From positions 1 through 64,000 of IMG/VR virus record IMGVR_UViG_3300030098_003782: a stretch of 64,000 nucleotides of DNA; one strand, given 5' to 3'. Below, one piece after another: positions 27,565 to 59,700 of the stretch (the first letter of the stretch is position 1; every line of letters begins with the position of its first letter). This stretch comes from a virus. Under the pieces are notes generated by a model, which saw only the letters and a program-made list of their open reading frames with translations, was not told where the DNA came from and ran no database searches. The position numbers were made by a program, and so were the translations under genes.

Positions 27565-27575
27565 ATTAAACAAAA

Positions 27576-28205: not shown

Positions 28206-28231
28206 ATTAATAATAATTAAAAACAATAAAA

Positions 28232-37597: not shown

Positions 37598-40500
37598 CTA
37601 GAGATTAAACCACTTAATAGCCTCTCCAGGAGTTGTACTAGTCCCAACACCTTTTAGTATAGGAACAGCCTTTTCTAGTTTATTATCCCATTTAAGTTCT
37701 CCTTTTTTATTTTTACCTGATTTTCTTTGGTAGTATATATTTTTTTCAGGTATTAATCCTCCCATATTACCAGTACCAAAATAATACATATTTTCTAAAG
37801 TAGATAAAGCAAATGCAAAAATATTTTCTATAGGTCTAACTGTTGCAGTAGGAGATTTAGTTAATCTCCATGTTTCTTCAGGATTTACATAAAATAAAAG
37901 TTCTGATCGTAGTCTTCTGTTTTGATACAATAAGAAATTAGTTGCCCAAGAATTAGGTTCTTCATCATCAGGATCTATTAGTAATGCCGCTGCAAAAGAA
38001 AGTAAAAATGATCCAGCAAGAGAATTTATTTCTATTGCTACTCTTCTTATATTTTGTTTTTCTAGTTCAGACATATTTTTATATTGATTGCTTTGAGATT
38101 TAATAGAGTCTCTAAGCATTTTATAAAAAGTAACATAAGTTCCTTGAGTCAATGCTCCTAATTCATGATCTGAATGCCATGTTTCTCCATGTCCAAATCT
38201 TCTTCTGTATCCAGGAACCATCCATCCTCTAAATAACATTACCAATTTACCATACCAATGTCTTTTTAAATGATTAGAATCAAATTGATTATATACACCA
38301 TTAGTACGTTTATTTATACCGTGAAGTCTATTCATAAATCTAACCTTATCAAAATTAGCTACTCTTGGATCTATTTTAAGTCTTCCATTAACTTGACTAT
38401 GAGCATCTAACATTGTCATATCAGATCCATCAGGATTTTTTAATTGTTTACCATTTTTATCTTTAGCTTTCATAAACTCAAGCATTGCCATACCTCTAGT
38501 AACTTGCACCTCATGCTCTGCTCCATGTTGTAAGAAAAACAATGCATCTGAAGAAAATAATTTTTTAGCATTTGAACCTGTTACATTTTTACCGTTAGTT
38601 TTAGCAAATTGTCCTTGAATCATATCATACTCATTTAACATTTGGCCTACAAATGTAGTAGGAGCTATTTTACCTAAATCTCCAATTCCTCCACCTTTAC
38701 TCCAATAAGTTGTTTTTGCTTTTAAAACTGATTTTCTATCTACAAACTGACCGGCCGCAGCTTCACTCCATCCTATTATATTATCAAGTACGTTTTGGTT
38801 AACTCCTTGCAATAAGTTAAAAGATAAAGCATTCATAGCAGTATATCCGGCTAATTTACCTGATAATTTATTAGCTTCAAACTGTTTACCTAAAAATGTA
38901 AATTGTTTTTTAATTGTTTTTTCTCCATATATATTTTGATCTAAAAAAGATGTTAAATGTTTAAAATTATTAGTTTCATGACCTTCTTTAGACCTAGGTT
39001 GTTCAATACCTAAACCTTTTGCTAAACTATTTATAATCTTTATACCTGATGGAGAAGTTAAATCTGTTTCTCTAGATTCAATTATATCTGTCATGATTTG
39101 TATTTCTGCTTGAATACTTGCTTTTGCTTCGTAAGTATTTGCCATAGCCACAAATTGCAGTAAACTAGATGTTATATCTAAACTAATATCTTTTTTGTCA
39201 ACTGCATTAGTATAAAATGCAGGAACAACTTTACGCTGTTTACCTCCAATGGTTTCCCATTGCTGTCCGTATATATGCTGATCTGTTTCTGTAATATCTG
39301 TACCATCAATCCACCATTCTTTTAATGTAGGTAATACTCCTTTTTCTATAAGCATGTCTTTATCAACTTTTCTTATTGAAGGTAACATATACGACATTTC
39401 ACTAAAACTATCTCTTCCTAATTGATGACCTGCGGATCCTAATTTATCTTGATGCTCTTTATATATTTTTAAAACTCCTTCATAGAATTTTTTAGATTTA
39501 GGATTAGCCATAATAGCTTTATACTTTGGATTCGTATAGTCTGTTCTTTTTCTCCCGTCAGACATTTTTTCTCCTCGTGAGGGTCTTAATAAAGATCCTT
39601 TAGGAGTTAATTGTGATGGATATCTAGGATTAACATAATAATTAGTTTGTCTCCAATTATCTAAAATACTTAATTCCATTTCATAAGTAGTCAATTGATC
39701 TACTTCTAAAGCGGTAATTGTATTATCATCTACCTTTTTTTGGAATGGTCTCATTACTTTATAAAGATCTTGAATCTTTTTTTCATGCTTTTCCATTATT
39801 TGTTGAGCATCTTTTTTAGGTACTGTATTTTCTCTTCTCCATTTACCCATAGCCTCTCCAAATGCTCTTCGTGTTAATCTGTACAATTCATCTCTAGTTT
39901 GAGCTCTGTATACAATTTTACCATTAACTTTGTAATTATCTATACTATTTAAATAGTCTTCAAATAACTCATCGCTCTCAAAATCTTTTCTTTCTCTAAA
40001 ATAAGTTTTATTTTTTGCTTCTATAACTGCTTTTTGTTTATTAATTTGGTACCTATTCATATCATCTGGTTGTACTATACTAGCTCTATCAATTTGTTTA
40101 TAAGTACCTTTTTCATCTCTCACCCAAGTTTTAACACTTTCAAGCATTTCTCCATATAATTTTTCAACATTATTAATAGACTTTCCTTCACTAAATTCTT
40201 TATACAGATTCATTATTTCATATGCAGTATCTCTACTTTTATCTTCGCCTTTTATTAAAGAGTCTTTAACCGCTAGTGCAAATAATTGAATAGCATTATC
40301 ATTAGAATATACTAATGGATCTAACCAAAATGAAAACTTACTTGCATCTTTAGAAGCTCTAGTTAATATTTCAGTTAAAGCCTGTTTATGCATTTTTTTA
40401 CTTTCTAACTGTTCTTTTACTAATTCAATAAGATTTTCATCATATTCTTCTTTAGTTATCCTATTTGTTCTAAGATCATTTTGTAAAGAAACAAATTTAT

Positions 40501-42130
40501 TACTTTTTTTATCTAGATGTCTAGTAGCAGCTACTACTTTATTTTCTAAAGTTTCTTGTTCATCAATATTTTGTATTAAACTGTCTATATTTTCATTTAC
40601 TTCTTGAGAAATATAAGGAGTTAAAAAATCAGCCATTGCTGGAATAACTATTCTGAAATATTGATCTTGTAAAGATCTTCTTTGTCTTACTACAGCGCCT
40701 AATTTATCATATGTAGTTTGGAAAGCAGTTGTATGTTTTGCCATGCCTTGCTTTTCTGTAGTAAATAATGTTTCTAATCCTTCTAAAATATCAAATCCTC
40801 TAATATATTCATTTAATTCTGAAACACTAGAAGCATCTTTAGAATCTAATTTTTCACCATTTTTTATTTTATTTTCTAATAATTGATATTTATTAGCAAT
40901 ATTAGCTGTAATTTTAGCAGACATGTCTATAAAAGATATAAAATCCTCTAATGTCTTTACGCTTTCTAAAGTTTCTTCTAGAGATTCAGCTCTTGCTTGA
41001 CTTGCAGCATCATTACGTTGTTCTGCTATTTTTTTAAGTTGTCTAGTATATATTCTAACTTCATCTATTTTCTTTTGTAAAGAATTTTTGTCTCTAGACT
41101 CTTGAGTAAATCCACTTATATTACCAACAAAAGCCTCAGATCTTAATTCTCCAGCAAACATTTGTTCTGCTAATACGGCAGCAGCATTTTGCCTTATTCC
41201 AAACATTTTTCCAATAGATCTAAATATTTTATTTAATAATATTCTAAATTTAGATGGATTTTTTCTTTCTATTTTAGCTCCTTCTATACCTATAGCTGTA
41301 GCTAATATTTCTTTATCTAATTTAACTCCATCTAAATGAGGATAAGCATCTATTACATCTAAAGCTATAGAAGATCCTTGTAATTGTTTTAAAGCCTGTC
41401 TTATTAAAGGATTTTGCATTCCTAATAAATCTACGTATATATGCCCAAATTCATGATAAACACTATCATCTTGTAGATATTCATTATTTAATCTAATGAC
41501 AGCAGATCTAGGTCCCACACCTCTAACATCAGCAGAAACATTTTCTGCTAAATCATTAGTAAATTCTATTCTAGTTTTTATTCCTACGTTTTTAAAAACA
41601 TCTTGTAATTTAGAAGCTTTTTTAGCAGACTCACTTAAAGCCTCTTCTTTTCCATATAAAGCTCTATTTTCTGATGTATTTTCTCTTCTAACCTGCTCAG
41701 AAAGAGATTGTTCAGCTAATTTCATTTCTCTTTCTTCCTTTTGTCTAGCTAATAATTCCTCTTCAGCTTGAATTTCTGCAATATCTTCAGGAAAAGTCAT
41801 ATTTTTGATATTGTTAAGAACTGCAGTATTTATTTTAAAGGTATACTTTTCATTTCTTTCATGTCCAAATCTATTTCTAGTTTGCCCTTTATACTCATAG
41901 TCAATTAAATTAGGATATCTTCTATTTATTCTTCTAACATGATTTAAAGCTATACTAGAGTCTTCTCCTTGATAAATATACATTTGTCCTTTATATTGCT
42001 GTATAACGTTATACTCTTTTAAAATATCATGTATCATACCTAAATTAGGATTTCTTTCCTGTAACGCATTATATAAATGCGTTAAAAATTGATTAGGTCT
42101 ACCATGTAAGTAATATCTACATCTTTTCAT
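37598..42130 (-). CDS. Giant virion protein with zincin motif (1510 aa)
   Basis: Residues 1-110 form a small basic domain. A Glu/Arg coiled part follows, then a zincin motif VYHEFGHIYVDLLG (His226, Glu227, His230) with KEILATAIGIEGA downstream as possible third-ligand helix. Most of the remaining length is charged helix. Near the end is a hydrophobic segment (INSLAGSFLLSFAAALLID). It starts one base from the RNA polymerase gene, so the two are coupled. By analogy with crAss-like phages it is probably packed in the virion and ejected. The peptidase could open the envelope or release proteins from the capsid. Confidence 0.6.
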   Translation of the reverse strand: MKRCRYYLHGRPNQFLTHLYNALQERNPNLGMIHDILKEYNVIQQYKGQMYIYQGEDSSIALNHVRRINRRYPNLIDYEYKGQTRNRFGHERNEKYTFKINTAVLNNIKNMTFPEDIAEIQAEEELLARQKEEREMKLAEQSLSEQVRRENTSENRALYGKEEALSESAKKASKLQDVFKNVGIKTRIEFTNDLAENVSADVRGVGPRSAVIRLNNEYLQDDSVYHEFGHIYVDLLGMQNPLIRQALKQLQGSSIALDVIDAYPHLDGVKLDKEILATAIGIEGAKIERKNPSKFRILLNKIFRSIGKMFGIRQNAAAVLAEQMFAGELRSEAFVGNISGFTQESRDKNSLQKKIDEVRIYTRQLKKIAEQRNDAASQARAESLEETLESVKTLEDFISFIDMSAKITANIANKYQLLENKIKNGEKLDSKDASSVSELNEYIRGFDILEGLETLFTTEKQGMAKHTTAFQTTYDKLGAVVRQRRSLQDQYFRIVIPAMADFLTPYISQEVNENIDSLIQNIDEQETLENKVVAATRHLDKKSNKFVSLQNDLRTNRITKEEYDENLIELVKEQLESKKMHKQALTEILTRASKDASKFSFWLDPLVYSNDNAIQLFALAVKDSLIKGEDKSRDTAYEIMNLYKEFSEGKSINNVEKLYGEMLESVKTWVRDEKGTYKQIDRASIVQPDDMNRYQINKQKAVIEAKNKTYFRERKDFESDELFEDYLNSIDNYKVNGKIVYRAQTRDELYRLTRRAFGEAMGKWRRENTVPKKDAQQIMEKHEKKIQDLYKVMRPFQKKVDDNTITALEVDQLTTYEMELSILDNWRQTNYYVNPRYPSQLTPKGSLLRPSRGEKMSDGRKRTDYTNPKYKAIMANPKSKKFYEGVLKIYKEHQDKLGSAGHQLGRDSFSEMSYMLPSIRKVDKDMLIEKGVLPTLKEWWIDGTDITETDQHIYGQQWETIGGKQRKVVPAFYTNAVDKKDISLDITSSLLQFVAMANTYEAKASIQAEIQIMTDIIESRETDLTSPSGIKIINSLAKGLGIEQPRSKEGHETNNFKHLTSFLDQNIYGEKTIKKQFTFLGKQFEANKLSGKLAGYTAMNALSFNLLQGVNQNVLDNIIGWSEAAAGQFVDRKSVLKAKTTYWSKGGGIGDLGKIAPTTFVGQMLNEYDMIQGQFAKTNGKNVTGSNAKKLFSSDALFFLQHGAEHEVQVTRGMAMLEFMKAKDKNGKQLKNPDGSDMTMLDAHSQVNGRLKIDPRVANFDKVRFMNRLHGINKRTNGVYNQFDSNHLKRHWYGKLVMLFRGWMVPGYRRRFGHGETWHSDHELGALTQGTYVTFYKMLRDSIKSQSNQYKNMSELEKQNIRRVAIEINSLAGSFLLSFAAALLIDPDDEEPNSWATNFLLYQNRRLRSELLFYVNPEETWRLTKSPTATVRPIENIFAFALSTLENMYYFGTGNMGGLIPEKNIYYQRKSGKNKKGELKWDNKLEKAVPILKGVGTSTTPGEAIKWFNL

Positions 42131-42131: not shown

Positions 42132-45100
42132 TTATATTGATTTTATATTTACACATCTTTTTTTAGCATCTTCATTATCCTCAACAATTTCATCTATTCT
42201 TTGTTCATGATATTTTGCTAAACCTGGTTGAATATTTTCTCTACCTGCTTGATTACCTTGTATTACAGATTTATCTACTCTCATACCTTCAGAATTATAA
42301 ATATTTAATTCTTTTAATCCATAAGGTATTCCTTTAGTAGTAGATCTTTTATATAAAACATTATCACCTACTTCGTCTACTTTAACAAATAATTTAGTAC
42401 CTTGTGGAGAAGACACTTTAAAATAATCTGTTGTTTTATTTAAAATCTTAGAATATATTCTACTATCTTTTTTATTTAGTTGAATTGTATTTGCAGCTAC
42501 AGACTCTTTATTAACTTTAATTTGATTAACTACATCAGTGTAATAAAAATTACGTATAAAATCATGTGCAAAATTATTACCTAAATATTCTATTTCATCT
42601 AATAATTCAAATTGCTCATAAAAATAAGTTGATGAATTACTTAATACTTCTACAGGTATTATATCTATAAAACTATCATGTCCCGGAGTAAATCCATGTG
42701 ATAATAAAGATATACGTATAAAATCAGTAGCCAACTCTCTTATTTCTGCTTCTGAATCTAAAAATAGATTTTTTAATCCTAAAGAAAATAAATCTGTTTC
42801 ACTTTTTGTAAATGAATTAATATTTTGAAATTTAACTCTAGTTAATATTGAATCTTCCTTAAGATTTTCTGGATGTTCTATTATATTTTTTATAAACATA
42901 TTTTCCTCTAATCTAGGAAATTTAGCTTTTAAATCTTGTAGTTTTGCTAATACATTTGTTTTTGGTCGTATTAATAGATTTCTTATATTATCTTCTGTAA
43001 ATACTGTAGATTTTAAAGGGCTATTTTCTTTAGACATTATTTCTAATAATATAGCTTCTTCTATAAGTCTATGATCAACATCAGATAAATTATCTTTATT
43101 TAATAATGTTCTTATTTGCTCTTTAACTTTAATTACAGATCTTTTATTATGAATAAAAAATTCTGATCCAAAATCTAATAATTTATCAATTAACTGTTTG
43201 TAAGATTTTTGTAGGGGATATGATTCTCCTTCTAAAACACTATTAAGACCTCCAATTAAATCGTTTTGTACTAAAACATCTTTTCTTGATTTATATGATA
43301 ATAATCCACCAAAATTAGCCTGATCTGCACCTTTATCTTGATTTAAAAGTACATAAGCACTTGTTAAATCTCTTCCTGTTTTATGGAAAGATAAGAAATT
43401 ACTAAGATACTGAAGTTGATCTTCATGAATTATATTTTCTTCTGATATATTACTTAATTTTTCCGTAGACATTTCTACAAATCCAAAATCTGAAACTTCT
43501 GAAAATGGCATATCTATATGCTGCCCAACAGTATATTTTGATGTATAGGTATTCCAAGTTTCACTTACAGCTTCGTATAACATATTAGGTGTATATTCAC
43601 CATCTTGATATACTCTAGTTAACATTCTAATAACAGGTTGATTTAAAAAGTCATGCGTAACATATTCATTAATACCTAAAGAGTCAAATAAAATACTAAT
43701 AGGCGCAGTTAAAGCATTATCATTTCTAAAATACATATCTGGATTTTTAGCATTATCTACTGCAGAACTAATACGCTTAGAAATATTATATTCAATCAAT
43801 TCACTTTTTTCACCTCTTGTACGATTAGAAGTAGTTTTATCATCAAATATAGATTGTAAATTATTATATTCTTGACCATCTATAACAGGAGCTAAACCAG
43901 CTTTTAAATGTAATTGAGAATAAACTGCAATATTTTTACCGGTTGCGGCATTAGCATATATTCCAATACCACTGTTACCATCTTTATTCATTCTTTCTAA
44001 TTGAATTTCAGAAAAAGAATCATTATGATCAAATTCTTCTTTTAGTCCTAAAGTTTCTTTAACTTGATTTGCTATAAATGCAAGATTAGGAGAGTCTAAT
44101 GGGGTTACTACCTCTCCAAAATGTGCAAAAGATTTAAGAATAGATTCTGCTAAATCAATTATTATATTTTCTAACTCAGGTCTTTCTAGTTTTTCTAATG
44201 CTGAATAATCTACTTCTGGGCCTATAAATAAATTTCTATAATTTACATTTATTTTTTCCTGTCTTCCAGTCTCAGGGTTTTTTCTTGTATTAGGCTTCAT
44301 TAATTGTAATGTATCAATATCAAAATCAGCTCCCATTTGAACTGTAATACCTGCAGGAACCATAATTGCTTGATCATAATTTCTAGGTAATATATACTTA
44401 ATAATCATAGGAAGCATAGAATTTTTACCTTGAGTAGGAATACGATATCCTATTAATATTCTTAATTCTTCAGGCATTGTGGATAAATCTTCCCCAGGTT
44501 TAAATCCATATTGAGCAGCTAGTTCTTCACTAATAGCTACTTCTGCATGTTTTATAGTACCATTTTCATTTCTAATAAATTTTAATTCTGTCCAAGAGCT
44601 TGGTAAACCCGTAGCTTGATCCCATGTTATATGGCCTCCTAATTCTGCTATTTGTTTAGCACTTCCTCCATTAATTGTTTGTTTAACAATATCTTTTTTA
44701 AGCATCCCCATAATAATACTTTCAAACTTTCGTTTTAAAGTTGGAAAAGCTAAAGGTATTTTAAATCTATAGTTTCCTTTTTCTGTTTTTTCAATCTCTA
44801 AAGCTTTTATATAATTTTCAGCTAATTCTCTATCTTTAATTTCTTGTATTAATCTGGTTCTTAAATTTTTAAGTAAATTTAATTGTGCTGTATTTTGGGC
44901 TTCATATCCAACTGCTTTTACTAAATCTCCATATCCTAAATCATTCATAAGCTTTTTATAGCTTTTATCAATCATATTTGATACAGTATTATGATATAAA
45001 TCAAATACCTGTCTTCCATTTAAAGCTCTTTCATTAATTCTATTTTGATTTACAATATAATTTAATGCGGGATCATTTAAATCTATATTAGATATAATAC

Positions 45101-48100
45101 CTAACATAAATTGTCTACCCAATAAACCATAATCTTTAGTTTTTTCAGGTATTATTTGTGGTATTCTAAATCCTGATCCAGGTAAAGTAGTTACATCCAT
45201 ATTAGTTAATCTGTCTAACACTTGATCAGTATCATTTAAATTTTCTACTCCTGTATAAGCTAATTTTTTAGTACTTACAGTATTTAATACATGCATAGTA
45301 GGTAATTCTGCAAAATTTCCTTCACCTTCTAATCTTTGTCTAATTAACTCTGCAGTAGGATTATTTAATGTAAATTCTTCTGTTAATACCATATAAGAAT
45401 TTTTTGTATTTTGAGGCATCATCATACCATTTTTTTCAACCATAGCATCAAAATATCCTTTTATAGGCTCAAGTCTTCTACGCCTTCCACTATTATCCCT
45501 AAAAAATTTATTTCCAGATCTTCCATTTTTATAATTTTGATATGCCTCTTCATCTTCTTTTTGCCACTCTCCTTTACCTTCTTTAAAAGCTTTATAAAAA
45601 TCTATAGATACAACTCCAAAAGCATCTGACTTATTAGACCTTTTATATGAATTTCCTATTTTTTCTGCATTTATATCTCCTTGAGCTTCTAAAGTTGCTG
45701 TTATAGAATCCCCAATTTGCTCATAAACTACCGGAGTAGTAAAAAAGTCTTCCATTAAACCTTCATTAAACTGTCTATAAAATCCATATCCAGGATCTTT
45801 TAAGTCTCCTTTTAATAATAATTTATACCCAGGAGTTTCCATATTACCAAATCTTTTAGAAAAATCTGTATAACTTTTATTAAAAGCTATCCCTCCTCTA
45901 GTAAATTTTTGTAGTTCAATCTTATGAACCATATTATTAAACTCATATTGTCTAAATAATTCTTCAAGACTAGAATATGGATTAGAAACAGATTTTTTAA
46001 GTTTATCTAATATACCTTTTGATTGATAATAAGCCATATTTTTCTTAGCTCTTTCGTTTAAAGCATCTATAACTTTTGCAACCTCATTGTTTAAAGCATC
46101 ATTAACAGCTTCTCTATTAATAACCATCACATCTCCAGAAAGATAATCTTTCCAGTCTACATCACTTAAAAGATATTGTATTTTTGTTTGAAATACAGCT
46201 GAATTTTCAACCGGTGTTAATTGTAACAATTGAAAAGCTTTACCATCTTTACTTCTTGGGGATTCTTGATAATGAAATCCAGGTATTAACTGATTATCTG
46301 GTAATCCTCCTTCTTCTACTGATTCTGTTTGTAAATCTGCTTGTTGATATCTCATCAAGTCTTGAATTATAAGACCTTTAATTATATCTTTATCAGATAA
46401 ATTAAGTTTAGTTTTAATAGTATCTATAGAAGGAACTGTATAAGCTTTTAACTTAGATCTGTCAGAAAGATTAGGTACAAACATTTTAACGTATCCTCTT
46501 TTTCCTGATCTATCCATAAAAGCTCCAAGTCTTATATAAGCAGATTGTATCTCATTCATTTCACCAAAATCAAAAGATCTTCCACTAAATTTTACATATC
46601 CATCAAATATTTCAGTTGTTAAATTTGCTCTAGCTTCATTAGAAAAATTACCTGCAAGACCTCCATATATTGTTAACCATAAAGATCTGGCTTTAGAATT
46701 ATATTCTGCAGGATTATAAAATACATCTTTTAAAAATGGTTCAAAAAACTCTCTATTATTACCTTTAAGATTTAAAATTAAATCATCCATAGGAGTAGGC
46801 ATATTTATAGGATGTATTGAATTATTTTTAACATTTAAAAATGATGTAAATAAATCTACTTGTCCAGACATTGCTATACTAGAAAATTTAGATAAAATAC
46901 CTCTATAAGTAGTATATATATTTTCTCCTTTATTTACACCTTTTACAAGTCTAGATACTTCTGTCGCAGTTCCATTATCTAGCATATTTTTATATAATGC
47001 AACTCCTTTTAACTTTTGACCTGTTTTAGAAAATTCGGTAGAACCTTCATTAAAATATGTTGTTAATAATTCTTTAGATTTTTGAGGTGAGCTTGTTATA
47101 TCAACTCCTAAAATATGTAAAAAATTAATTAAATCTTCTATTCTTTTTTCTGGTAAAGGTTTAGACGGATTATCATTATAAATTTTATTCATAGATTTAA
47201 AAGTTGTATTTAATTTAGATACTCTTTTTTTATTTGTACTATAAATTAAATTATCCCCAACTTGTCTTATACTGTATAAATGTCTTTCATTTGGAAATCC
47301 TTTATGCTGCACAGCATTTGTTCTCCATTGATCTATAATTCTAGTTTCTACCGCATTTCTATTAGAATTCATAAACTGTAATCCTTCTGTAGTTTCTTTA
47401 GCTAAGAAAAAATTATTTTTACTTTGCATAAAAGTAAATGCAAAACCAGCTCTTAAATTATTATCTGTAGTTTCTCTTAATCGTTTAACAACTTCAGCTA
47501 TATGAGGTTTTGTTTTACCTGCAATATCTAATCTGTTAAGTATTATTGGAAAGGATGTTGAATCTGCTAATATACTTTGAATGTCTTTATAGACCGTATC
47601 AAAAGGTAAGTAATTTTCATAGCCTAAATATGAAGATTCTCCTGAAGGAATAGTTGATAAAAATTCTTTTATTTGAGAATTTATTTTATTTCTCATATCT
47701 TCTTCTACTCTAGATCTAGAATAAATTCTTTCATAAGCTGTTCCCTCCTCTACCTCTTCTAATATAACTTCTCCAAGTTTTAATTTTAATCCATAATTTA
47801 CTAAACCATCCTGCATTAAACTTTCAAATCCTACTCTTCTTAAATTTTCAAGTTCTGAATTATCAATTATATCATTCCAATTTGTATAAATATTTAATAA
47901 ATATTCATGATTATTTTGATTAGGATACATATGAGTTTTAGGCTCTCCTTTTATAGGTCTAACAGATTGTTTTTTAATTTGATTATTAAATAATATTTTG
48001 TCATCTCTTTTTTCATACCATTCTCTTAATACTTCTAATTTCTCTGCTCCCTCTATGGGTAGTCCCTCATTAGTAGAAAAAGCCTCTCTAAGAACTGAAT

Positions 48101-50501
48101 TTTTTACTTTATTATTTAAAGTTTTATATGGAACTTTTTTATTTTGATCTTTATAACTTTGTATTGTATTTCTATATCTAGCTGTTAAATAGTCTATAAC
48201 TTCTTTAATATTTGCATCTGAATATCCTTCTATACTATTAGCTGTATCAGGTCTAAATCTTTGTATATTTCTTTTAAATGTTACAGGAACTACGTTAGAT
48301 TCAAGCATTTCATAAGCTTGTTTTATAGTCATACTATCTTTAAAAAGAGATTTAATAAAATTCCATATATTTTTAAAGAACTTACCTATTTTGCCGCCAG
48401 GAGTTGCCTGCCCATCAGTTAGCATATACTCACTAAACTCTTCAGCCATTTTTTCTTCTAGTACTAATTTCTCAGCTTCTTTTATAGATAACTTTTCTTG
48501 TCCAAATTGTTTTCGTATCTTATTTATTTCTCTTATTTCTTTGTCTGTAGGTATACCGTATTTTTTTCTAGCCTCTTTATACAAAGATTCTCTTTGTTTA
48601 TCATTCATCCATATTCTAAACATACCATGAAATCCTTCATGAAATTCTGTTCCTATTTTAGCATTTTGGTATAAATAAAATGCCATATTTTCAAAATATC
48701 CATGTCTAGTTATATTACCTATTTTATTAACTCCTTCTAATACAGTGGTAGATCCTTTACCAAATCTATCTTCTAACCACTGTTTTGCTTTTTCTTTATC
48801 TATTCTAGGAGAATGTCTAGCATCTCTTTCTGCGCTAAATACAGTTAAGTCATCTAAATCTTCAGGTTTTATTTTAGGAGCTGCAGATATATTAGGTGGA
48901 TTAGTTTTTGCTGTTGGAGGCCCTAAATTAGGAGATATAGCTGGATTTAAACCTCCTTCTGGAATTATAGTAGGATCAGTTAATATAGATTTACCGTCTA
49001 TTAATACATCATTAAATATTACATGTGTATTATAGTAAATAGATCCTTCTATATTTTTTAAATCTGTATTTAAAATTGCTCCATGGTTTTTAATTGGTAT
49101 ATTATAAGCATAGGGGTCACCATGAGCCTCTTCATCAAATAAATATTCTTGATATGAATTATATCCCCCAGGTTTAGTAAATCCTGGAATAGAAAATTTT
49201 TCTTGGCTAGTTAATAAATCTACATTTATTTGGTGTTTTTTATTTTTAAGTGTATTTAAAAATTCATTTATTAAATAACTTGTTTCTTTTGATTTTGGAG
49301 ATTTTATTTTCTTTGATGTTTTCCATTTAAAGTTTGGTACAGGAGAATCTATAGACTCTTCTACAAAACGCCCAACATCATATACAAACTCTTCTCCGTT
49401 TAACCCTTTATTAAACTCTTTAGAATCTATTCTTATAGCTTTATCATGTGTAGGACTATAAAAATTTAAGAATACTACATTTCCTTCATTAAGAGGAACT
49501 TCTTCAATAGATAAAAAATTAGGATCTTTATGTGCAACTTCAAATAATGTGCTATTACCTACTACTTGATTAATATTTTCAACTCTATTTTCAGATAATT
49601 CATTTAATATATATTCATAAGCCTTATCAGATAAATTTCTAGTACTTAATTTAACATATGAATACTTACCTTCTGGAGTCATGGTTAGAGAAAATATTTG
49701 TCCCATATGTTCAGGTTGAGGTATTCTAGTAGGATCTCCTAAATCTCCAATAATAGCCTCTTGTATCTTTGGGTTTAAATAGCTTAAATCTCCAGGATTC
49801 CATCTAGGAGTTTTACCTATACCTGTAGCAACAAGTAATATAGGTCTAGTTTCTTCTCCCGTAGGTGTTATAAAATTACCATCAATATCTCTAAGTGTAG
49901 TCATTTTTAACTCTTCAGTAATATTAAAAAATACTGGCATACCCCCAATTCTAATATTATTAAAATTAGGTATTTTAGAGTCTACTTGTAATTCAACTTT
50001 TTTCGGATTTTTAGCCGTTAAAGCTTCATATATTGCTTTTCTAATATGAGTATTTACATTATGTTCTTTAAAAGATTCTAATAAATCTAATCTATTACCT
50101 TCTTTATCTACAATATATAAAGGAGCTTCTATCCAAGGCTCTTCAAATTTATCTTTATTATTTGCCCAATAATCATTTTCAATAAATTGAATTTCTACAA
50201 AATCTCCAGGTAATACTTTAGGAGTATTTAAATTAGATTGATCTAAATTATCAGAAACATTATTTATAGTATTTGGATTTTTCTTTACAGGTACTATTTC
50301 ATCACCTTGAATTCTAACAGCTCTTCTAATCCTACCTTCTACATTTTGAATTTCATTACCATATTTAGCATTAGCAATTTTTATTTTACTACTATCAACT
50401 TCTTTATTAGGTTGTAGTCTAGCTTCAATTGCAGCTTTTAATTTGGCGATTTCAGCAAGTCTAGCTTCTATATCGCTTATTCTTTTTTTATTACATCCCA
50501 T
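42132..50501 (-). CDS. Giant virion RNA polymerase (2789 aa) with metallopeptidase-like domain
   Basis: The catalytic loop of a two-barrel RNA polymerase is visible as QMGADFDIDTLQLM (Asp2059, Asp2061, Asp2063). It is preceded by LIGYRIPTQGKNSMLPMIIK, the equivalent of the R-x-P segment of cellular beta'. The DFDID loop is the signature of the crAss-like virion polymerase (phi14:2 gp66), which is ejected into the cell and transcribes early genes. At about residues 615-720 there is a zincin motif TEFHEGFHGM (His621, Glu622, His625) with a Glu-rich helix EEKMAEEFSEYML. The N-terminus is a short coiled coil. It is one of the largest proteins in the genome and is coupled to both neighbours by gaps of 1-4 bases. 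Confidence 0.85.
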   Translation of the reverse strand: MGCNKKRISDIEARLAEIAKLKAAIEARLQPNKEVDSSKIKIANAKYGNEIQNVEGRIRRAVRIQGDEIVPVKKNPNTINNVSDNLDQSNLNTPKVLPGDFVEIQFIENDYWANNKDKFEEPWIEAPLYIVDKEGNRLDLLESFKEHNVNTHIRKAIYEALTAKNPKKVELQVDSKIPNFNNIRIGGMPVFFNITEELKMTTLRDIDGNFITPTGEETRPILLVATGIGKTPRWNPGDLSYLNPKIQEAIIGDLGDPTRIPQPEHMGQIFSLTMTPEGKYSYVKLSTRNLSDKAYEYILNELSENRVENINQVVGNSTLFEVAHKDPNFLSIEEVPLNEGNVVFLNFYSPTHDKAIRIDSKEFNKGLNGEEFVYDVGRFVEESIDSPVPNFKWKTSKKIKSPKSKETSYLINEFLNTLKNKKHQINVDLLTSQEKFSIPGFTKPGGYNSYQEYLFDEEAHGDPYAYNIPIKNHGAILNTDLKNIEGSIYYNTHVIFNDVLIDGKSILTDPTIIPEGGLNPAISPNLGPPTAKTNPPNISAAPKIKPEDLDDLTVFSAERDARHSPRIDKEKAKQWLEDRFGKGSTTVLEGVNKIGNITRHGYFENMAFYLYQNAKIGTEFHEGFHGMFRIWMNDKQRESLYKEARKKYGIPTDKEIREINKIRKQFGQEKLSIKEAEKLVLEEKMAEEFSEYMLTDGQATPGGKIGKFFKNIWNFIKSLFKDSMTIKQAYEMLESNVVPVTFKRNIQRFRPDTANSIEGYSDANIKEVIDYLTARYRNTIQSYKDQNKKVPYKTLNNKVKNSVLREAFSTNEGLPIEGAEKLEVLREWYEKRDDKILFNNQIKKQSVRPIKGEPKTHMYPNQNNHEYLLNIYTNWNDIIDNSELENLRRVGFESLMQDGLVNYGLKLKLGEVILEEVEEGTAYERIYSRSRVEEDMRNKINSQIKEFLSTIPSGESSYLGYENYLPFDTVYKDIQSILADSTSFPIILNRLDIAGKTKPHIAEVVKRLRETTDNNLRAGFAFTFMQSKNNFFLAKETTEGLQFMNSNRNAVETRIIDQWRTNAVQHKGFPNERHLYSIRQVGDNLIYSTNKKRVSKLNTTFKSMNKIYNDNPSKPLPEKRIEDLINFLHILGVDITSSPQKSKELLTTYFNEGSTEFSKTGQKLKGVALYKNMLDNGTATEVSRLVKGVNKGENIYTTYRGILSKFSSIAMSGQVDLFTSFLNVKNNSIHPINMPTPMDDLILNLKGNNREFFEPFLKDVFYNPAEYNSKARSLWLTIYGGLAGNFSNEARANLTTEIFDGYVKFSGRSFDFGEMNEIQSAYIRLGAFMDRSGKRGYVKMFVPNLSDRSKLKAYTVPSIDTIKTKLNLSDKDIIKGLIIQDLMRYQQADLQTESVEEGGLPDNQLIPGFHYQESPRSKDGKAFQLLQLTPVENSAVFQTKIQYLLSDVDWKDYLSGDVMVINREAVNDALNNEVAKVIDALNERAKKNMAYYQSKGILDKLKKSVSNPYSSLEELFRQYEFNNMVHKIELQKFTRGGIAFNKSYTDFSKRFGNMETPGYKLLLKGDLKDPGYGFYRQFNEGLMEDFFTTPVVYEQIGDSITATLEAQGDINAEKIGNSYKRSNKSDAFGVVSIDFYKAFKEGKGEWQKEDEEAYQNYKNGRSGNKFFRDNSGRRRRLEPIKGYFDAMVEKNGMMMPQNTKNSYMVLTEEFTLNNPTAELIRQRLEGEGNFAELPTMHVLNTVSTKKLAYTGVENLNDTDQVLDRLTNMDVTTLPGSGFRIPQIIPEKTKDYGLLGRQFMLGIISNIDLNDPALNYIVNQNRINERALNGRQVFDLYHNTVSNMIDKSYKKLMNDLGYGDLVKAVGYEAQNTAQLNLLKNLRTRLIQEIKDRELAENYIKALEIEKTEKGNYRFKIPLAFPTLKRKFESIIMGMLKKDIVKQTINGGSAKQIAELGGHITWDQATGLPSSWTELKFIRNENGTIKHAEVAISEELAAQYGFKPGEDLSTMPEELRILIGYRIPTQGKNSMLPMIIKYILPRNYDQAIMVPAGITVQMGADFDIDTLQLMKPNTRKNPETGRQEKINVNYRNLFIGPEVDYSALEKLERPELENIIIDLAESILKSFAHFGEVVTPLDSPNLAFIANQVKETLGLKEEFDHNDSFSEIQLERMNKDGNSGIGIYANAATGKNIAVYSQLHLKAGLAPVIDGQEYNNLQSIFDDKTTSNRTRGEKSELIEYNISKRISSAVDNAKNPDMYFRNDNALTAPISILFDSLGINEYVTHDFLNQPVIRMLTRVYQDGEYTPNMLYEAVSETWNTYTSKYTVGQHIDMPFSEVSDFGFVEMSTEKLSNISEENIIHEDQLQYLSNFLSFHKTGRDLTSAYVLLNQDKGADQANFGGLLSYKSRKDVLVQNDLIGGLNSVLEGESYPLQKSYKQLIDKLLDFGSEFFIHNKRSVIKVKEQIRTLLNKDNLSDVDHRLIEEAILLEIMSKENSPLKSTVFTEDNIRNLLIRPKTNVLAKLQDLKAKFPRLEENMFIKNIIEHPENLKEDSILTRVKFQNINSFTKSETDLFSLGLKNLFLDSEAEIRELATDFIRISLLSHGFTPGHDSFIDIIPVEVLSNSSTYFYEQFELLDEIEYLGNNFAHDFIRNFYYTDVVNQIKVNKESVAANTIQLNKKDSRIYSKILNKTTDYFKVSSPQGTKLFVKVDEVGDNVLYKRSTTKGIPYGLKELNIYNSEGMRVDKSVIQGNQAGRENIQPGLAKYHEQRIDEIVEDNEDAKKRCVNIKSI

Positions 50502-50504: not shown

Positions 50505-53500
50505 TTAAGTATTACAATTATCGTCTTCTTTGTTAAGCTCTTGTCTTAACCGTTCCTCCTCTTCTAAAAGTTGTTGATAATATTCATCTACACCTTCTAT
50601 AGGAAGTACATCTACTTCAGCTGTTGAGTTATCTATATCTTTTTTCATATCATCATTTAACTCCTCTTTTAATCTTTGTTCTTCTTCTGGAGATATCTCT
50701 TCCTTTATTATTACTTCTTCAGTTGAAAAATCTGTTTTATCTGTTTGAGTTTCACCCTCAACTGTTTCTTCTGTGTTTAAAACAACATCACCTTCTATAA
50801 CTCCTAACTCAATAAGTTTTTCATAAGCATATCTTCTACTTCCCTTTGCATTGTCTCTTCCTGCTCTATAAGGAGCTTGAAATGATAATGTTCCCATTAA
50901 TTTTGAATCGTAATCACTTTTTCGAAGAGGTATTCCTTCTTCTATTTCTTCTTTTATTTCTGGCATTAATTCTGCAGTAACTCGTTCAGAATTACCAGTA
51001 TTTATAGGACCAGTTCCCCATATCCATCTTTGCATAGCATTAACTAGTATAGCTTCGCTGTGTTCTTGAGGATTATTTAAAATATCTTCCATTAAAAAAT
51101 CAGCAATTAATTCGTTTCCTTTTCCTGTTTCTTTAGCTTTGCTATAAATAAATCTTTCTATTTCTTTTTCTGACCTATTTTTATCACGGTATAGTTGTAA
51201 TACTTCTTTATGCTTGTCTTGAAGAACATCTTCTAATAATTTTAATCTTTCTTCTTTACTAGTTACAGGAGGAATACCTTTAATTTTTCTAAAAGATCTA
51301 TGCTTACCGCTTTTCTCATCTTCTTCAATAGGGGTTTCTTTCTTTGTATTATTTTTAGGATTTAATTTTACAGCTTTAAGAGCTTCTAAAACATTAAGTT
51401 TATGTCTTAAATATTTAGCCTGTTTAGGATTATCTCTAATTTCATCTAATTCTTTTATAGTTTTTTCTATTTCCTTATCTATAAGTTCAACAGAAACATT
51501 TGGATCTCCATATTTATCTTGAATTGCTATTTCTTGTTTTTGCATTTTTTTAACTTCAGCTTCTACTTCTTTACGCTTTGCTTTACTAACTGCAGAAGGA
51601 ATATTTCTTAATGCACTTTGTGGATCAGATTCAGTATTTATAATTTCATCTGCTCTTCTATTTGCTGCGTTTTTAATACTTTGCTCTCCTGCAGCTAAGG
51701 CAGCTCTAATATAATTAGTTCGTCCTCTATTTGTTTGTAATCTATTCCAGTTCTCCATAAGATCTTGTAAATTACGATGTAAAAAATAATATTCTGACAT
51801 CTGTTTTTGTATAGCCTCTTTATCTAAAGGATGTTCAAATTTAACATTTTTAACTGAATTTGCAACACCATCTGTAAAAGTTTTATAAGCTTTATTATGC
51901 AGTTCATTTAAATCTTCTTTAGGAATTTGGGCCATAGTTGTTATAACATTTCCATTTTCATCTGTTTTTCCTGTTGCTTGTGCATTTAAAATGTATTCTT
52001 CTACTAAAGCATCAAATTGCTCAGTAGCTAAATCTACTTGTTCTTCTAATGTGCTTAAGGTTACACCTGGAACTAGTGAATCTATTTCTTTAGCTTTATC
52101 TTCTTTTTGGTTACTTATAGTATCTAAAAAAACTGCATTATGAAGAAGTTGAGCTTTAAGCATTTGATTTTCTTTTATTCTGTTTGCTTCTCTTTCTCTT
52201 CTAGTTTTTCCCATTAAAACTCTTGGAAGACCTTTTGTTGCTTCTTCAGAAAACATTTCATCTAAAGCATTTTTTCTTCTAACTATAGTTTCAGTTTCTT
52301 CTAGCATATTATCAATAACTTTATTTTTATCTATTTGTATATCTTGAGCTATACCAAAAAGATTTTTAAATTCTGTATCAGAAAGAGATCTAAAGTCATT
52401 TAATCTAGTTGTAAAAAATTCTAATGTACCTGCATTATCTAATGTTGATATTTCATTTATAAGAGCTTGAGTCATTGCTTGATCAGCTAACTTATCTTTA
52501 CCTTCAGCTCTGTATTTATCAGCTTTATCTAAATAGTACGAAGTTGCTGAACTAGATTGACCTCTATTAATAATACCCATAAAAGCGTCATCATTCATAA
52601 TTTCCTGAACTCTAGAAGCTAGTTTATTTCTATTTTTTACTCTACTATAAGTACCTACACTTCCTCCTATACCTCCAACTATAGCTCCAATCATCATAGA
52701 TTCTAATCCTTCTGTTTCTCCAAACGTTCTAGATAAACCTTCAGTTATAGCTTCTGTTGAAGTTATACCTCCATCATTATCAAATCTAGAAGCATAATAT
52801 TCTGTAGAAGCTACATTAGTAGCATATTGACCTCCTTCTTGTATTGCTTCTACAGTCATTCCTCTTCTTGCTCCACTTGTCCATTTTCTTAATCTTCCTA
52901 ATTTAGAGGCTGATCCTTTATCTACTATTTGTTTACCAGTTTGTTGTAATCCTCCTCCAGTTATTCCACCTTTTAAACTTTGTTTAGTTACACCCCCAGC
53001 TAAAAATTTACCAAACATACCTACATTAGTTATAGATAATATAGACATATTAGCTGCAAAACTAGCATTACCAGCAGCTTGAGATAAAGCTTCTATTTCA
53101 TTTAAAACATGTCCAGGTATACCTTCAGGATATTTTTCTAGAGCTTCGTCCATTAATCTTCTTTTTATATTTTTTTGAGTTTCTCTAGCTTCTACAGAAG
53201 ATTCTGCTAAAGACATCATAGCCCCTGCTTCTAAAGTTAATAGTCCTTTTTTAATTCTTCCTGTTTTATTAACTTTGTCATACATTGATAATAACTGTTC
53301 TCCTCGTTTAGTTCCTTTAGCTGTTTTATAAAGTTTATGTATTCTTTCAGCTTTAGTTGCAGCATTTAATACCCTACTCGCTTGAAGAACTCTACCAGCT
53401 ATTCCTATAGCGCCATATCCTCCAGTCATCCATACAGTTGCTAGTGATCCTAAAGTGTATCCTAAACCATTAGCAGCTTTATCAGCCCAAAAGTTAGCTG

Positions 53501-54053
53501 TGCCCATTCTACCCCAAAGACCCATATCTTGCTCTGCTCTTGTATAATAATTAGGCATTTCTTTTCTACCCCATTCATTCCACCCATCTACCATTTTACC
53601 AATTTCATTATTATGATATTGACCACCACTTAACATTTCATCAATACCAGCTATTATACCTATAGTATTTTCTACTATAGCCCCTCCTGTAGTTATAGCT
53701 GCTTTTTTAAGTCCATGATTCCATTTTTCTCCAGTAGTTTGTTTTTGTGCCCTTAGTTCATTCCATTCTTCTCCATAAGCACTGAATATAATTCCATATT
53801 TACTGTATTTAGATGGATGATCATATTCACCCAAGTCCGGATTCCATTGTTTATATGATAAATCCCTATGTCTGAACATAGAAGGATCAGTTATACGTCC
53901 GCTTTTAGGTCCTACAGGTAAAGGCATATCAGGATCTATATGTAAACTATTTGTAAAATTAGTAGGTCTATGCCTTTTTCTATAATTAGGTAATTTAATA
54001 TCCTTATCTATATTTATACCTGTATAATATTTTGATCTATCGTGATGGCTCAT
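50505..54053 (-). CDS. Giant putative ejected protein with glycine-rich membrane-like segments (1182 aa)
   Basis: The first 480 residues contain several glycine/alanine-rich hydrophobic segments, such as GAIVENTIGIIAGIDE, GLGYTLGSLATVWMTGGYGA and MMIGAIVGGIGGSVGTYSRV. They look like membrane or glycine-zipper segments used by podovirus ejection proteins. The rest is highly charged helix with a very acidic tail. It lies next to the virion polymerase. Probably an internal virion protein that helps form a channel through the cell envelope. No enzymatic motif was found. Confidence 0.55.
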   Translation of the reverse strand: MSHHDRSKYYTGINIDKDIKLPNYRKRHRPTNFTNSLHIDPDMPLPVGPKSGRITDPSMFRHRDLSYKQWNPDLGEYDHPSKYSKYGIIFSAYGEEWNELRAQKQTTGEKWNHGLKKAAITTGGAIVENTIGIIAGIDEMLSGGQYHNNEIGKMVDGWNEWGRKEMPNYYTRAEQDMGLWGRMGTANFWADKAANGLGYTLGSLATVWMTGGYGAIGIAGRVLQASRVLNAATKAERIHKLYKTAKGTKRGEQLLSMYDKVNKTGRIKKGLLTLEAGAMMSLAESSVEARETQKNIKRRLMDEALEKYPEGIPGHVLNEIEALSQAAGNASFAANMSILSITNVGMFGKFLAGGVTKQSLKGGITGGGLQQTGKQIVDKGSASKLGRLRKWTSGARRGMTVEAIQEGGQYATNVASTEYYASRFDNDGGITSTEAITEGLSRTFGETEGLESMMIGAIVGGIGGSVGTYSRVKNRNKLASRVQEIMNDDAFMGIINRGQSSSATSYYLDKADKYRAEGKDKLADQAMTQALINEISTLDNAGTLEFFTTRLNDFRSLSDTEFKNLFGIAQDIQIDKNKVIDNMLEETETIVRRKNALDEMFSEEATKGLPRVLMGKTRREREANRIKENQMLKAQLLHNAVFLDTISNQKEDKAKEIDSLVPGVTLSTLEEQVDLATEQFDALVEEYILNAQATGKTDENGNVITTMAQIPKEDLNELHNKAYKTFTDGVANSVKNVKFEHPLDKEAIQKQMSEYYFLHRNLQDLMENWNRLQTNRGRTNYIRAALAAGEQSIKNAANRRADEIINTESDPQSALRNIPSAVSKAKRKEVEAEVKKMQKQEIAIQDKYGDPNVSVELIDKEIEKTIKELDEIRDNPKQAKYLRHKLNVLEALKAVKLNPKNNTKKETPIEEDEKSGKHRSFRKIKGIPPVTSKEERLKLLEDVLQDKHKEVLQLYRDKNRSEKEIERFIYSKAKETGKGNELIADFLMEDILNNPQEHSEAILVNAMQRWIWGTGPINTGNSERVTAELMPEIKEEIEEGIPLRKSDYDSKLMGTLSFQAPYRAGRDNAKGSRRYAYEKLIELGVIEGDVVLNTEETVEGETQTDKTDFSTEEVIIKEEISPEEEQRLKEELNDDMKKDIDNSTAEVDVLPIEGVDEYYQQLLEEEERLRQELNKEDDNCNT

Positions 54054-56759: not shown

Positions 56760-59700
56760 TTAAAAGTATTTGGTTTGTCCCATTCCGTACATATTAGCAT
56801 AATTAGCTATATCTTCATTTGTACAATTTTCACAGAATAGTCTTCCATCCTGATGATATAAAGTCCCACCTAAGTGTCTTCTTAATAACATACGATTTGT
56901 AGTATTATCTATACTATATCCTTGAGCTTTTAAGGTATCTCCTTTATATCCTAAAACATCTCTAGTTAATTGTCCTATACCCTGAGCTGCAGAGAATATT
57001 CCTGAATACTTCATATATTCTTGATCATCTCTCCATTTATTTAAAGCTGCTGTATTAAAAGCTTGTACATCTTGTAGCCTCTTAGCTTCTTGTTGCTGTA
57101 ATTGCATATTTTGTGTCATCGCTTCTTGTTCTTGTCTTACATTAAAAAGCTCTGTTTGATTTTCAATTGCAACATTTTGATTTTCTATATTAGTGTTATA
57201 ATCTTTTTCTAACTTTGCAATCTCCATATCACCTTTATGCTTCTTGCCCCAGGTTGCCATTCTATTTATTAAATTGGCAGGACCTCCTCCAGACTGATCT
57301 ATAAAAGTATTCATAGCATTAAAATCAGCATCGTTTTTAGCTCTTTGCATATTTAAATTTATGTGATTTAATTTTTGAGCTCTTACTCTTTTTGGGACTA
57401 TAGGAGATGTAACTCCAGATTCAAAAGGAAGTGTTTCTGGTTTTGGTTGAGTATGAAGTAATGAATATGCTGCTGGTGCTAAATTGGCTAAAGCTCCCAT
57501 ACCAATAGCTACATCAGCTCCTCTATCGCCAGTTATACTTCTTTGCCACCATGGAAGTTGTTCTATTTCTTCTTTATTTACTAATGAATTATTAACAGTA
57601 GATACACCTGTACTACCATCTTCAAGTAAAGGACCAATAAATTGTTGATTAGGCCTTTGTATAAAATCAGGAATTCCATCATTATCTTCATCTGTTAAAG
57701 GAATTGGTTCTATATAAGATCCGGTAGGAACAAACCCTTCATCTATTCCTCCCATCAATTGATCCCATGCGGCTTGATGCTGTGGCCCCCATTGTGTAGT
57801 ATTATCCCAATTATAAGGTTTATATTTTCCACTTAACGGATCATATTGTGATCTATGCCATCTTTCATAATCTGCTCTAAATTCATCAAAACTAGAATAT
57901 CCTCTAGCATTTAATTCTTCTTCTGTAGGTTGCACATAAGTACCATAATTTTTCATAGCAGAGTATGAAGAATCAACATCACCTTCTGAGTATTTAAATT
58001 CAGGAGGATTTATATATCCTTTATCAGATAAATAGTTTTCAGCATCTATTGAAAAATAATCTCCTATTTGATTCCCATCTTCAAAATTAGTTGTAACATC
58101 ACCTTCTCGTGTAAATCCAGTAATTAAATTATAATCATTATCAACTGATTTATTATTATTAAATTTTCCAGCTATAAAATTTGGACCATAGTTTTTAACT
58201 CCTTCTGTTAAATTTATTTGACCATTATTATCAGATGTAAATTGTCCTGTATGAGTATATCCCCAATCAACAAATTCTTCTCCAGAATCCTCTGCTGCAT
58301 CTATATCGTTATAAGTAAATTCACCTGTTCCATGAGGCTTTCCATCTTTAAACTCTCCTTGGTACATTCCAATAATATAATCTGTACCTGCTGCAGGAAC
58401 AAACTCATGATCTAAAATCATTTCTCCAAGAGGGTCTTTTTCATCAGCATTTGGTGTCCAATATGTATACATAACTCCGCTACCATCTTGACAATTGCCA
58501 CTTATACATACAGTATATCCGTCACCCATTTCAGCATTAAATCCATAAGCTCTATCATAATCTTTTCTAAGCCCTATTGTTTCTTTTGGACCCTCTTCTT
58601 TTTCTTCTTTTTCTGGTTTTATTTCTTTATATTTACCATCTACAACTTGATAAAGATTTCCATTTTTTTCACTTTGATAATACCTGCCCTCTAAAGCATT
58701 TTTTATCTTTGGAGTACCTATAATTGGATTTTCTAAATTACTACCTAAACCTTCTAATATAGCATTATATTGAGCCATTGCTTCATTCCAACTTATACCT
58801 GCAGTTGCTGGATTAACCTTACCTTCACTTTTTTTGTCAGGATCTAAAGGATAATCAAATCTTTTTGGAATACTTGGATTTGCTATACCTCCATTTTCAT
58901 ACTTCATAAATCCTCCATGCTTAGCTTCTTGTACTTTATTAGGACTTCTACCAGCTGCTTTTTCTTGCATTCTTGCTAAGTAATTAATCTGCTCTTGATC
59001 TCCACCAGAAGCTAAAATTTGTTTATGCATATCAGCAAAAGACATACCTCCTTTCTTTAAATGTGAAGAAAAGAAATAATCTTTTGCTCCGCCATTTTTC
59101 ATAACTACTTTATCCATAGTTTCTCCATCTTCTACTTCAGTCATAGGATCTACTAAAATACCTCCTTGATCGTGAGTTTGACCAGTAAATTCTACTGCGT
59201 CTGATCCTGGTATAGTAGTCATCATACCTCCAGGTAGTTGTTGCATTTTTTGATATAAACTAGGATTAGACATATACATTCCTCCAGATGCCTGTTTTTG
59301 TCTAAGACCTCCATTTTGAAACCCAAATAAATATTCTGTAATACCCATATCAGGTAAATTAAACCATCCTCTTTTTCCTACTGAACTATAAGGTCCCTTT
59401 TTTGACTTTTTAGTTTTTTCAGTTTTATCTTCAGATTCAGGAATTTGAAAAGTATAAGAATCTTCAAATGACGGGCCTATCATCACAGATCTATTTGGAT
59501 TTTCTTTATAATTAAATTCAGATACAGCTTGATTATAATAGTCAGGAGTACCATGAACATCTGAAGATGTATTATAATAATCAGACCAATATTGACCAAT
59601 ACCTTCAACTGATGTTGGTGCTGCTGTAGGATCAAGCATATAATATAACCTAGCCGCTAAAACATTAGCTAACGGATTAGATCTAACCTGCTCTAAAGTC

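What the first reader, a model, noticed from the sequence alone, without database searches (positions are those of the whole stretch)
42132..50501. A virion RNA polymerase fused to a metallopeptidase-like domain in one 2789-residue protein
The sequence shows a DFDID loop (Asp2059/2061/2063) preceded by an R-x-P segment, the core of a two-barrel RNA polymerase. About 1440 residues upstream it shows an HEGFH zincin motif (His621/Glu622/His625). Crass-like virion polymerases are known. The inference is that the zincin part cuts the polymerase free, or processes partner proteins, after ejection. A polymerase that carries its own protease would be a notable design.
Basis: partly seen in the sequence, partly recalled or inferred. 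Interest (0 to 1): 0.8.

Follow-up and report, generated by a model that had tools for sequence, protein, structure and literature searches.

The report
Virus RNA polymerase with attached protease
A crAss-like phage encodes one giant protein that joins the RNA-making enzyme it injects into its host to a protease-like (zincin) domain; both parts look real, but the pairing is widespread in these phages and already annotated, so the interest lies in lineages that keep the protease fold with a dead active site.

Summary
Confirmed: window 42132-50501 (minus strand) encodes 2789 residues with HEGFH at 621-625, YRIP at 2019-2022 and DFDID at 2059-2063. The polymerase half is a crAss-like virion RNA polymerase (phmmer to phi14:2 gp66, PDB 6VR4, E 1.9e-23). 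The upstream domain is a real zincin: H621, E622, H625 and a likely third ligand, E683, are invariant in 63 non-redundant relatives, and its AlphaFold2 model aligns best with zincins (Z about 6).
The design is not new. Nearly every relative found from the zincin has DFDxD 1230-1955 residues downstream in the same reading frame, including published gut phages (cr10_1, cr4_1). The prototype crAssphage annotation already reads 'RNAP associated protein fused to zincin protease'. A fused zincin and its self-processing were proposed for the N4 polymerase in 2017.
'Cuts the polymerase free' is possible but unproven. Against it: the zincin stays intact when gene splits separate it from the polymerase (crAss001); many polymerases lack it; and one clade keeps fused proteins of over 5000 residues in which both this zincin and a second one downstream have lost their active sites.
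Verdict: new member of a known kind. The dead-zincin clade and the second zincin in the next gene are the new observations.

The parts
42132..50501 (-). 2789-aa fused protein: upstream region, zincin-1, RNA polymerase
   Evidence: three IMG/VR relatives colinear over residues 1-2787 at 67-70% identity
48336..48800 (-). zincin-1 domain, residues about 568-722
   Evidence: AlphaFold2 model m666563740f4e, pLDDT mostly 85-97 here; VIA-align best matches are zincins, Z 5-6
48627..48641 (-). HEGFH, residues 621-625 (two zinc ligands and catalytic Glu)
   Evidence: H, E, H invariant in 63 relatives
48453..48455 (-). Glu683, likely third zinc ligand
   Evidence: invariant in 63 relatives; changed to T or another non-Glu residue in the clade that lost both His
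48234..48290 (-). low-confidence linker, residues 738-756; approximate place of the zincin/RNAP gene boundary in split relatives and candidate cleavage zone
   Evidence: pLDDT under 50 in the model; split gp47-like genes end 147-241 aa after the start of HExxH; cleavage itself is inference
43290..46085 (-). RNA polymerase core, residues 1473-2404, homologous to phi14:2 gp66
   Evidence: phmmer to 6vr4_A, residues 830-1395 and 1481-1775
44436..44447 (-).
   Evidence: Y, R, P invariant in 22 RNAPs
44313..44327 (-). DFDID, residues 2059-2063, catalytic metal-binding loop
50505..54053 (-). 1182-aa protein homologous to the N-terminal part of crAss001 gp47 and of the fused giant proteins
   Evidence: blastp to gp47, g067 and giant ORFs; phrog_32390 E 3.7e-27
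37598..42130 (-). 1510-aa protein: N-terminal zincin-2 plus a gp49/g065-like C-terminal part
   Evidence: blastp residues 865-1508 to crAss001 gp49, phi14:2 g065 and others
41441..41455 (-). second zincin motif HEFGH, residues 226-230 of the 1510-aa protein
   Evidence: H, E, H and a downstream Glu invariant in 20 relatives; model pLDDT 84.5, matches to LF-like and PPEP zincin folds Z 6-7.5

Best explanation
Identity (shown by sequence; [quoted passage not shown] Working (inferred; about 45%): the protein is made late, packaged as capsid cargo with its neighbours, and ejected partly unfolded ahead of the DNA. The zincin then trims the RNAP-block cargo polypeptides. In this phage the likeliest cut is in cis, in the loose segment after the zincin near residues 738-756, separating the gp47-like/zincin part from the polymerase; it may also act in trans on partner cargo. 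This is maturation or tuning, not an absolute requirement, because some lineages dispense with it.
For: RNAP homology with DFDID aligned to DFDID. Zinc-site residues invariant in 63 relatives. The fold comparison ranks zincins at the top, and the profile's best PDB matches are Pro-Pro endopeptidase/Zmp1 over the HExxH region (E 0.5, weak). In nearly all relatives found from the zincin, DFDxD lies 1230-1955 residues downstream in the same ORF. Natural gene boundaries fall on both sides of the zincin: some genes start about 100 residues before HExxH, others end 147-241 residues after it, so the flanking parts can work as separate chains. RNAP genes without a zincin are mostly already separate (24 of 28). 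gp47, gp49 and gp50 of crAss001 are virion proteins by mass spectrometry (PMC10172136).
Against: No cleavage has been observed. The zincin is intact in crAss001-type phages, where nothing follows it in the gene. 33 of 72 uncut RNAP loci had no detectable zincin-1 within the stretch fetched; a search of their whole records found it in only one. One clade of six keeps fused proteins (five with ORFs over 5300 residues) with no HExxH at all, i.e. both zincins dead. The zincin/fusion association is not significant in independent pairs (about 4 to 1). N4 virion RNAP, which also has a zincin, is packaged unprocessed (PMC5512222).
Confidence: 0.45

Rival explanations
1. The zincin is an injected effector that cuts host proteins (for example defence or transcription factors) early in infection; it is attached to the polymerase only to be packaged and delivered with it.
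For: The active site is conserved whether or not it is joined to the RNAP. The nearest folds include injected or secreted proteases that act on foreign targets. Iyer et al. list this option for polyvalent zincins (PMC5512222). Repeated loss and one inactivated clade fit an accessory role.
Against: The position next to the RNAP is extremely constant over very divergent phages, which is unusual for a free cargo effector; no swapping with other effector domains was seen at this place.
Confidence: 0.25
2. The domain is mainly structural: a folded spacer needed for packaging, ejection or assembly of the RNAP complex, with proteolysis secondary or absent.
For: Six relatives keep the domain in place although both His and the third Glu are lost (HExxH to WEAFR-type, Glu to Thr or similar), and one more lost the second His; the N4 region containing the zincin is required for encapsidation (PMC5512222).
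Against: In this phage and 62 other non-redundant relatives the four active-site residues are invariant although overall identity falls to 19-30%, which is hard to explain without catalysis or metal binding. Many phages lack the domain entirely.
Confidence: 0.2
3. HEGFH is a chance motif and there is no zincin.
For: No Pfam family matches this region in any of 63 members; Foldseek alone gives no significant PDB match.
Against: Invariance in 63 relatives and joint loss of all three ligand positions in one clade; zincins dominate the top VIA-align rows; the prototype crAssphage homologue is already annotated as zincin protease.
Confidence: 0.03

Closest known systems
Prototype crAssphage (Carjivirus communis, BK010471) KP06_gp45 'putative RNAP associated protein fused to zincin protease' and KP06_gp44 'putative RNAP catalytic subunit fused to unknown RNAP subunit'
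   Same: Same gene order and parts: gp47-like protein carrying HExxH 214 residues before its end, followed by the DFDxD polymerase
   Different: There the gene boundary separates zincin from RNAP, and the RNAP is fused to the gp49-like part; the zincin is too diverged for our profile to recognise reliably
Giant proteins of Suoliviridae: cr10_1 (4460 aa), cr4_1, cr53_1, cr60_1, cr113_1
   Same: Zincin and RNAP in one ORF, HExxH to DFDID 1431-1529 residues apart (1438 here)
   Different: Also contain the gp47-like N-terminal part that is a separate gene (50505-54053) here; four of the five use TAG as a sense codon
Bacteroides phage crAss001 gp47/gp50
   Same: Homologous zincin (GTTYHEAFH) and RNAP (DFDVD); both are virion proteins
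   Different: Encoded apart on opposite strands; zincin at residue 2157 of 2341 of gp47
Cellulophaga phage phi14:2 gp66 (PDB 6VR4)
   Same: RNAP homologous over the catalytic core
   Different: No zincin-1 in the gene or anywhere in the genome
Phage N4 gp50 virion RNAP and related polyvalent proteins
   Same: Virion RNAP fused to a zincin; autoprocessing already proposed (PMC5512222)
   Different: Polymerase is of the T7-like kind and the zincin lies after it, not before; profile match to our zincin is only suggestive (hhalign E 0.008, probability 5%)
Thermus phage P23-45 gp96
   Same: Two-barrel RNAP in one giant virion protein that also has a metallopeptidase domain (PMC10770324)
   Different: Fused to a tail tape measure protein of a long-tailed phage

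Membership tests
crAss-like two-barrel virion RNA polymerase | Sequence homology to phi14:2 gp66 over the catalytic core with DxDxD | tested here: met
   phmmer E 1.9e-23, DFDID aligned; Y/R/P of YRIP and D, F, D, D of DFDxD invariant in 22
crAss-like two-barrel virion RNA polymerase | Two double-psi beta-barrels in one chain | not tested
   Inferred from homology to the solved structure 6VR4; no model of this part was made
crAss-like two-barrel virion RNA polymerase | Packaged in the virion and active on early genes | not testable with these tools
   Shown for crAss001 cargo (PMC10172136) and, for phi14:2, cited in PMC10136315; not for this phage
Crassvirales | crAss-type terminase, portal, major head and muzzle proteins | tested here: met
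   phrog_6681, phrog_6547, phrog_11589 at E 1e-138 to 7e-91; Pfam crAss_MUZ E 4e-16
Zincin metallopeptidase | HExxH plus a third ligand | tested here: met
   H621, E622, H625, E683 invariant in 63 relatives and lost together in one clade
Zincin metallopeptidase | Zincin fold (sheet followed by the active-site helix and a glutamate-bearing helix) | tested here: met
   Model pLDDT 79.6 with strands before helix 86-99 (HExxH at 89-93) and helix 141-162 (Glu at 151); top VIA rows are LF, PPEP, IrrE/PprI, Z 5-6. Moderate, not strong; coordinates could not be inspected
Zincin metallopeptidase | Zinc binding and proteolysis | not testable with these tools
   needs protein
LF/PPEP-type (ATLF-like) zincin family | Significant sequence or structure similarity above other zincins | tested here: inconclusive
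   Highest rows but Z about 6 and tied with others; profile E 0.5 to PPEP-1/Zmp1; no Pfam match
N4-like polyvalent virion RNAP | T7-like RNAP domain fused to zincin | tested here: not met
   The RNAP is two-barrel gp66-like; works like it in having a fused zincin, but is not a member

The most novel reading that the evidence does not exclude
Two different zincins flank the crAss-like virion RNA polymerase (zincin-1 before it, zincin-2 in the next protein or fused after it) and act together as a built-in maturation system for the injected transcription machine; one phage clade has switched both off while keeping the whole block as one chain of over 5000 residues, a natural knockout that shows how the polymerase works without processing.
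Probability: 0.3. Interest if true: 0.65.

Novelty: new member of a known kind. Interest (0 to 1): 0.4.

Why it matters
crAss-like phages are among the most abundant viruses of the human gut, and how their giant injected polymerase is packaged, passed through a narrow tail and switched on is open. The comparison gives ready-made test cases: fused with live zincin, split with live zincin, zincin lost, and fused with both zincins dead. This makes the old proposal that zincins process injected phage polyproteins directly testable, and argues that processing, if it happens, is not obligatory.

Tried and rejected
Pfam and PHROGs on the whole protein: no informative hit; Pfam on all members of both zincin alignments: none. 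Foldseek against PDB: no significant match for zincin-1 (best E 0.6, LF); the best for zincin-2 is MATCAP, E 0.016. Hence reliance on VIA-align and conservation. Direct profile link to the N4 zincin: suggestive only. Considered that the zincin might be needed by every fused polymerase: rejected because of fused proteins without any HExxH and fused ones with zincin-1 lost but zincin-2 kept (L113, L117). Considered that the zincin/fusion association proves self-cleavage: raw Fisher p 9e-10, but independent pairs give about 4 to 1 with p 0.375, so not used as proof. Literature searches for crAss phage plus zincin, metalloprotease or peptidase in the held open library found no paper on it; the 2018 Nature Microbiology paper and the phi14:2 structure paper are not held, so prior mention in them cannot be excluded. 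One AlphaFold job went to zincin-2 rather than the RNAP core, because homology to a solved structure already settled the latter.

Full report
What is there. The ORF at 42132-50501 is on the minus strand and encodes 2789 residues. HEGFH is at 621-625, YRIP at 2019-2022 and DFDID at 2059-2063. By composition, 0.05 HExxH and 0.5 DxDxD motifs would be expected by chance in a protein of this make-up, so the motifs need support from relatives. The window is a crAss-like phage: terminase, portal and major head proteins match crAss-type PHROGs and 62308-63942 matches the Pfam crassvirus muzzle protein. The record is 68 kb long. No annotated phage is closer than distant homology (all matches under 60% identity, best coverage 29%), but three IMG/VR contigs encode full-length relatives at 67-70% identity.

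The polymerase. phmmer of the single protein finds one solved structure, 6VR4, the phi14:2 gp66 RNA polymerase, E 1.9e-23, over residues 1473-2080 and 2101-2404, with DFDID on DFDID and YRIP on YRIP. In 22 aligned polymerases the Y, R and P of YRIP, the glycine and the D, F, D, D of GxDFDxD, and several lysines are invariant. A profile from these finds 6VR4 at 3.6e-233, but that alignment includes phi14:2 itself and is not independent. I made no structure model of this part; the double-psi barrels are inferred from homology.

The zincin. From an alignment of known crAss-like homologues a scan of IMG/VR found 363 relatives, 80 of which were fetched. In 63 non-redundant sequences, down to about 19% identity, the invariant residues are H621, E622, H625 and E683. 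AlphaFold2 with that alignment gives pLDDT 79.6, about 90 in the core, with strands followed by the HExxH helix and then the helix bearing E683. Foldseek alone has no significant PDB hit, but VIA-align's top rows are zincins: lethal factor, Pro-Pro endopeptidases and IrrE/PprI, Z 5 to 6. The profile's best PDB sequence hits, though weak (E 0.5), are Pro-Pro endopeptidase/Zmp1 over the same HExxH region. Against predicted viral structures the matches are crAss-like giant proteins, among them one named 'Putative RNAP associated protein fused to zincin protease'.

How common the fusion is. In nearly every relative whose contig reaches far enough, DFDxD follows HExxH by 1230-1955 residues, mostly 1400-1560, in the same open reading frame. 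This includes published gut phages: cr10_1 (4460 aa, 1477 residues apart) and, reading TAG as a residue, cr4_1, cr53_1, cr60_1 and cr113_1. The exceptions are splits: crAss001, cr128 and Dulem 41 carry the zincin near the end of the gp47-like protein and the RNAP in another gene, and L053 is also split after the zincin. In a further group the gene starts at the zincin, about 100 residues before HExxH. In this window the break lies some 520 residues before the zincin domain: the 1182-aa protein at 50505-54053 is the gp47-like N-terminal part. The same chain is thus cut into genes at different points, often at the edges of the zincin. The prototype crAssphage has the same order, split after a diverged HExxH, and its record already names gp45 'putative RNAP associated protein fused to zincin protease'.

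The reciprocal test. Starting from the polymerase, of 80 loci 37 have the zincin in the same ORF, 2 in another, 33 have none and 8 are cut too short. Searching the whole records of the 33, plus phi14:2 and bajarodcaudo virus 1, found it in one of the 33 (L172) and weakly, in the gp47-like gene, in bajarodcaudo. The zincin-bearing state is spread over the whole polymerase tree with repeated losses; FastTree, labels far more clustered than in shuffles. Without a zincin the RNAP is usually a separate gene (24 of 28 rows, against 16 of 80 rows with a live zincin). The raw association is strong (p 9e-10) but only about 4 to 1 in independent pairs, not significant. The sample was collected by zincin for one half and by polymerase for the other, so proportions are not frequencies in nature.

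Dead zincins. Six loci of one clade (support 99) keep the domain, E 1e-24 to 1e-39, but with YWEAFRR-like sequence instead of YHEAFHR-like, and without the third Glu (tree). A seventh, L174, has HEVFE. In five of the six, single ORFs of 5338-5506 residues hold zincin-1 remnant, RNAP and gp49-like tail with no HExxH anywhere; the sixth (L112) is cut but also has none. In two of them (L112, L118) a zincin-2 remnant is recognisable but also lacks HExxH. The joint loss of the three ligand positions supports the assignment of the zinc site, and the persistence of a fused chain without any live zincin shows that self-cleavage by these domains is not needed in that clade.

A second zincin. The next gene (37598-42130, 1510 aa) has HEFGH at 226-230 in front of a gp49/g065-like part. 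In 20 relatives the H, E, H and a downstream Glu are invariant; the model (pLDDT 84.5) aligns with LF-like and PPEP zincin folds at Z 6-7.5. Some relatives carry gp47-like part, zincin-1, RNAP, zincin-2 and gp49-like part in one ORF, for example L106, 5331 residues.

How it most likely works. Shown: a crAss-like RNAP and an intact zincin site in one chain. Established elsewhere: crAss001 gp47, gp49 and gp50 are in virions and must pass a tail barrel with constrictions under 50 angstrom, so probably partly unfolded (PMC10172136); crAss001 makes gp47, the zincin protein, late and the RNAP genes in the middle stage, and its authors suggested gp47 could act in packaging, ejection or activation (PMC8375218). 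Inferred: the zincin processes the RNAP-block cargo, in this phage perhaps cutting in the loose stretch after residue 738, where split relatives have their gene boundary. From my own knowledge, not checked here, phi14:2 gp66 crystallised in a self-inhibited state with a cleft-blocking domain, so proteolytic activation would be an attractive purpose; but phi14:2 lacks zincin-1, so this cannot be the general rule. Rivals are an injected effector acting on host proteins and a mainly structural domain.

Known or new. Fusion of a virion RNAP to a zincin, with autoprocessing as a hypothesis, was published for N4 in 2017 (PMC5512222); a metallopeptidase domain in the P23-45 tape-measure RNAP is also described (PMC10770324); and the crAssphage zincin is in public annotation. 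This protein is therefore a new member of a known kind. What I found no record of in the held literature, which lacks the key subscription papers, is the breadth of the fusion, the gene breaks on both sides of the zincin, the paired second zincin, and the clade with both sites dead.

Noticed in passing
window 41441-41455 (minus), in 37598-42130: A second, different zincin (HEFGH) at the start of the gp49-like protein next to the polymerase, conserved in 20 relatives and in no Pfam family.
   Followed up: yes
L115, L116, L118, L120, L122, L112: A clade of fused crAss-like polymerase proteins whose zincin domains have lost all zinc ligands (HExxH changed to WEAFR-type; no HExxH anywhere in the ORF).
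   Followed up: partly
window 32140-33312 (plus): PHROGs calls this an HNH endonuclease, but Pfam gives a putative metallopeptidase (DUF2201_N, E 9e-19) plus a VWA-like domain, and it has HELLH near its start.
   Followed up: partly
window 6398-7999 (minus): A 533-aa tail-protein-like ORF (phrog_24249) contains HELGH at about residue 137 (window 7577-7591), perhaps yet another metallopeptidase.
   Followed up: no
L006 (crAss001) 17048-28338: PMC8375218 calls crAss001 gp49 the predicted catalytic RNAP subunit, but DFDVD and the gp66 homology are in gp50; gp49 has no DxDxD.
   Followed up: partly
L002, L007, L008, L014: The giant RNAP genes of cr4_1, cr60_1, cr53_1 and cr113_1 carry 38-73 in-frame TAG codons and no other stops, consistent with TAG being read as a residue.
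   Followed up: partly
window 17713-19530: A 1.8-kb stretch without an ORF of 100 aa or more between the minus-strand block and the plus-strand replication genes; a natural place to look for promoters of the virion polymerase.
   Followed up: no
window 56760-60020 (minus): A 1086-aa protein upstream of the RNAP block with a MORN repeat (Pfam E 1.3e-05).
   Followed up: no
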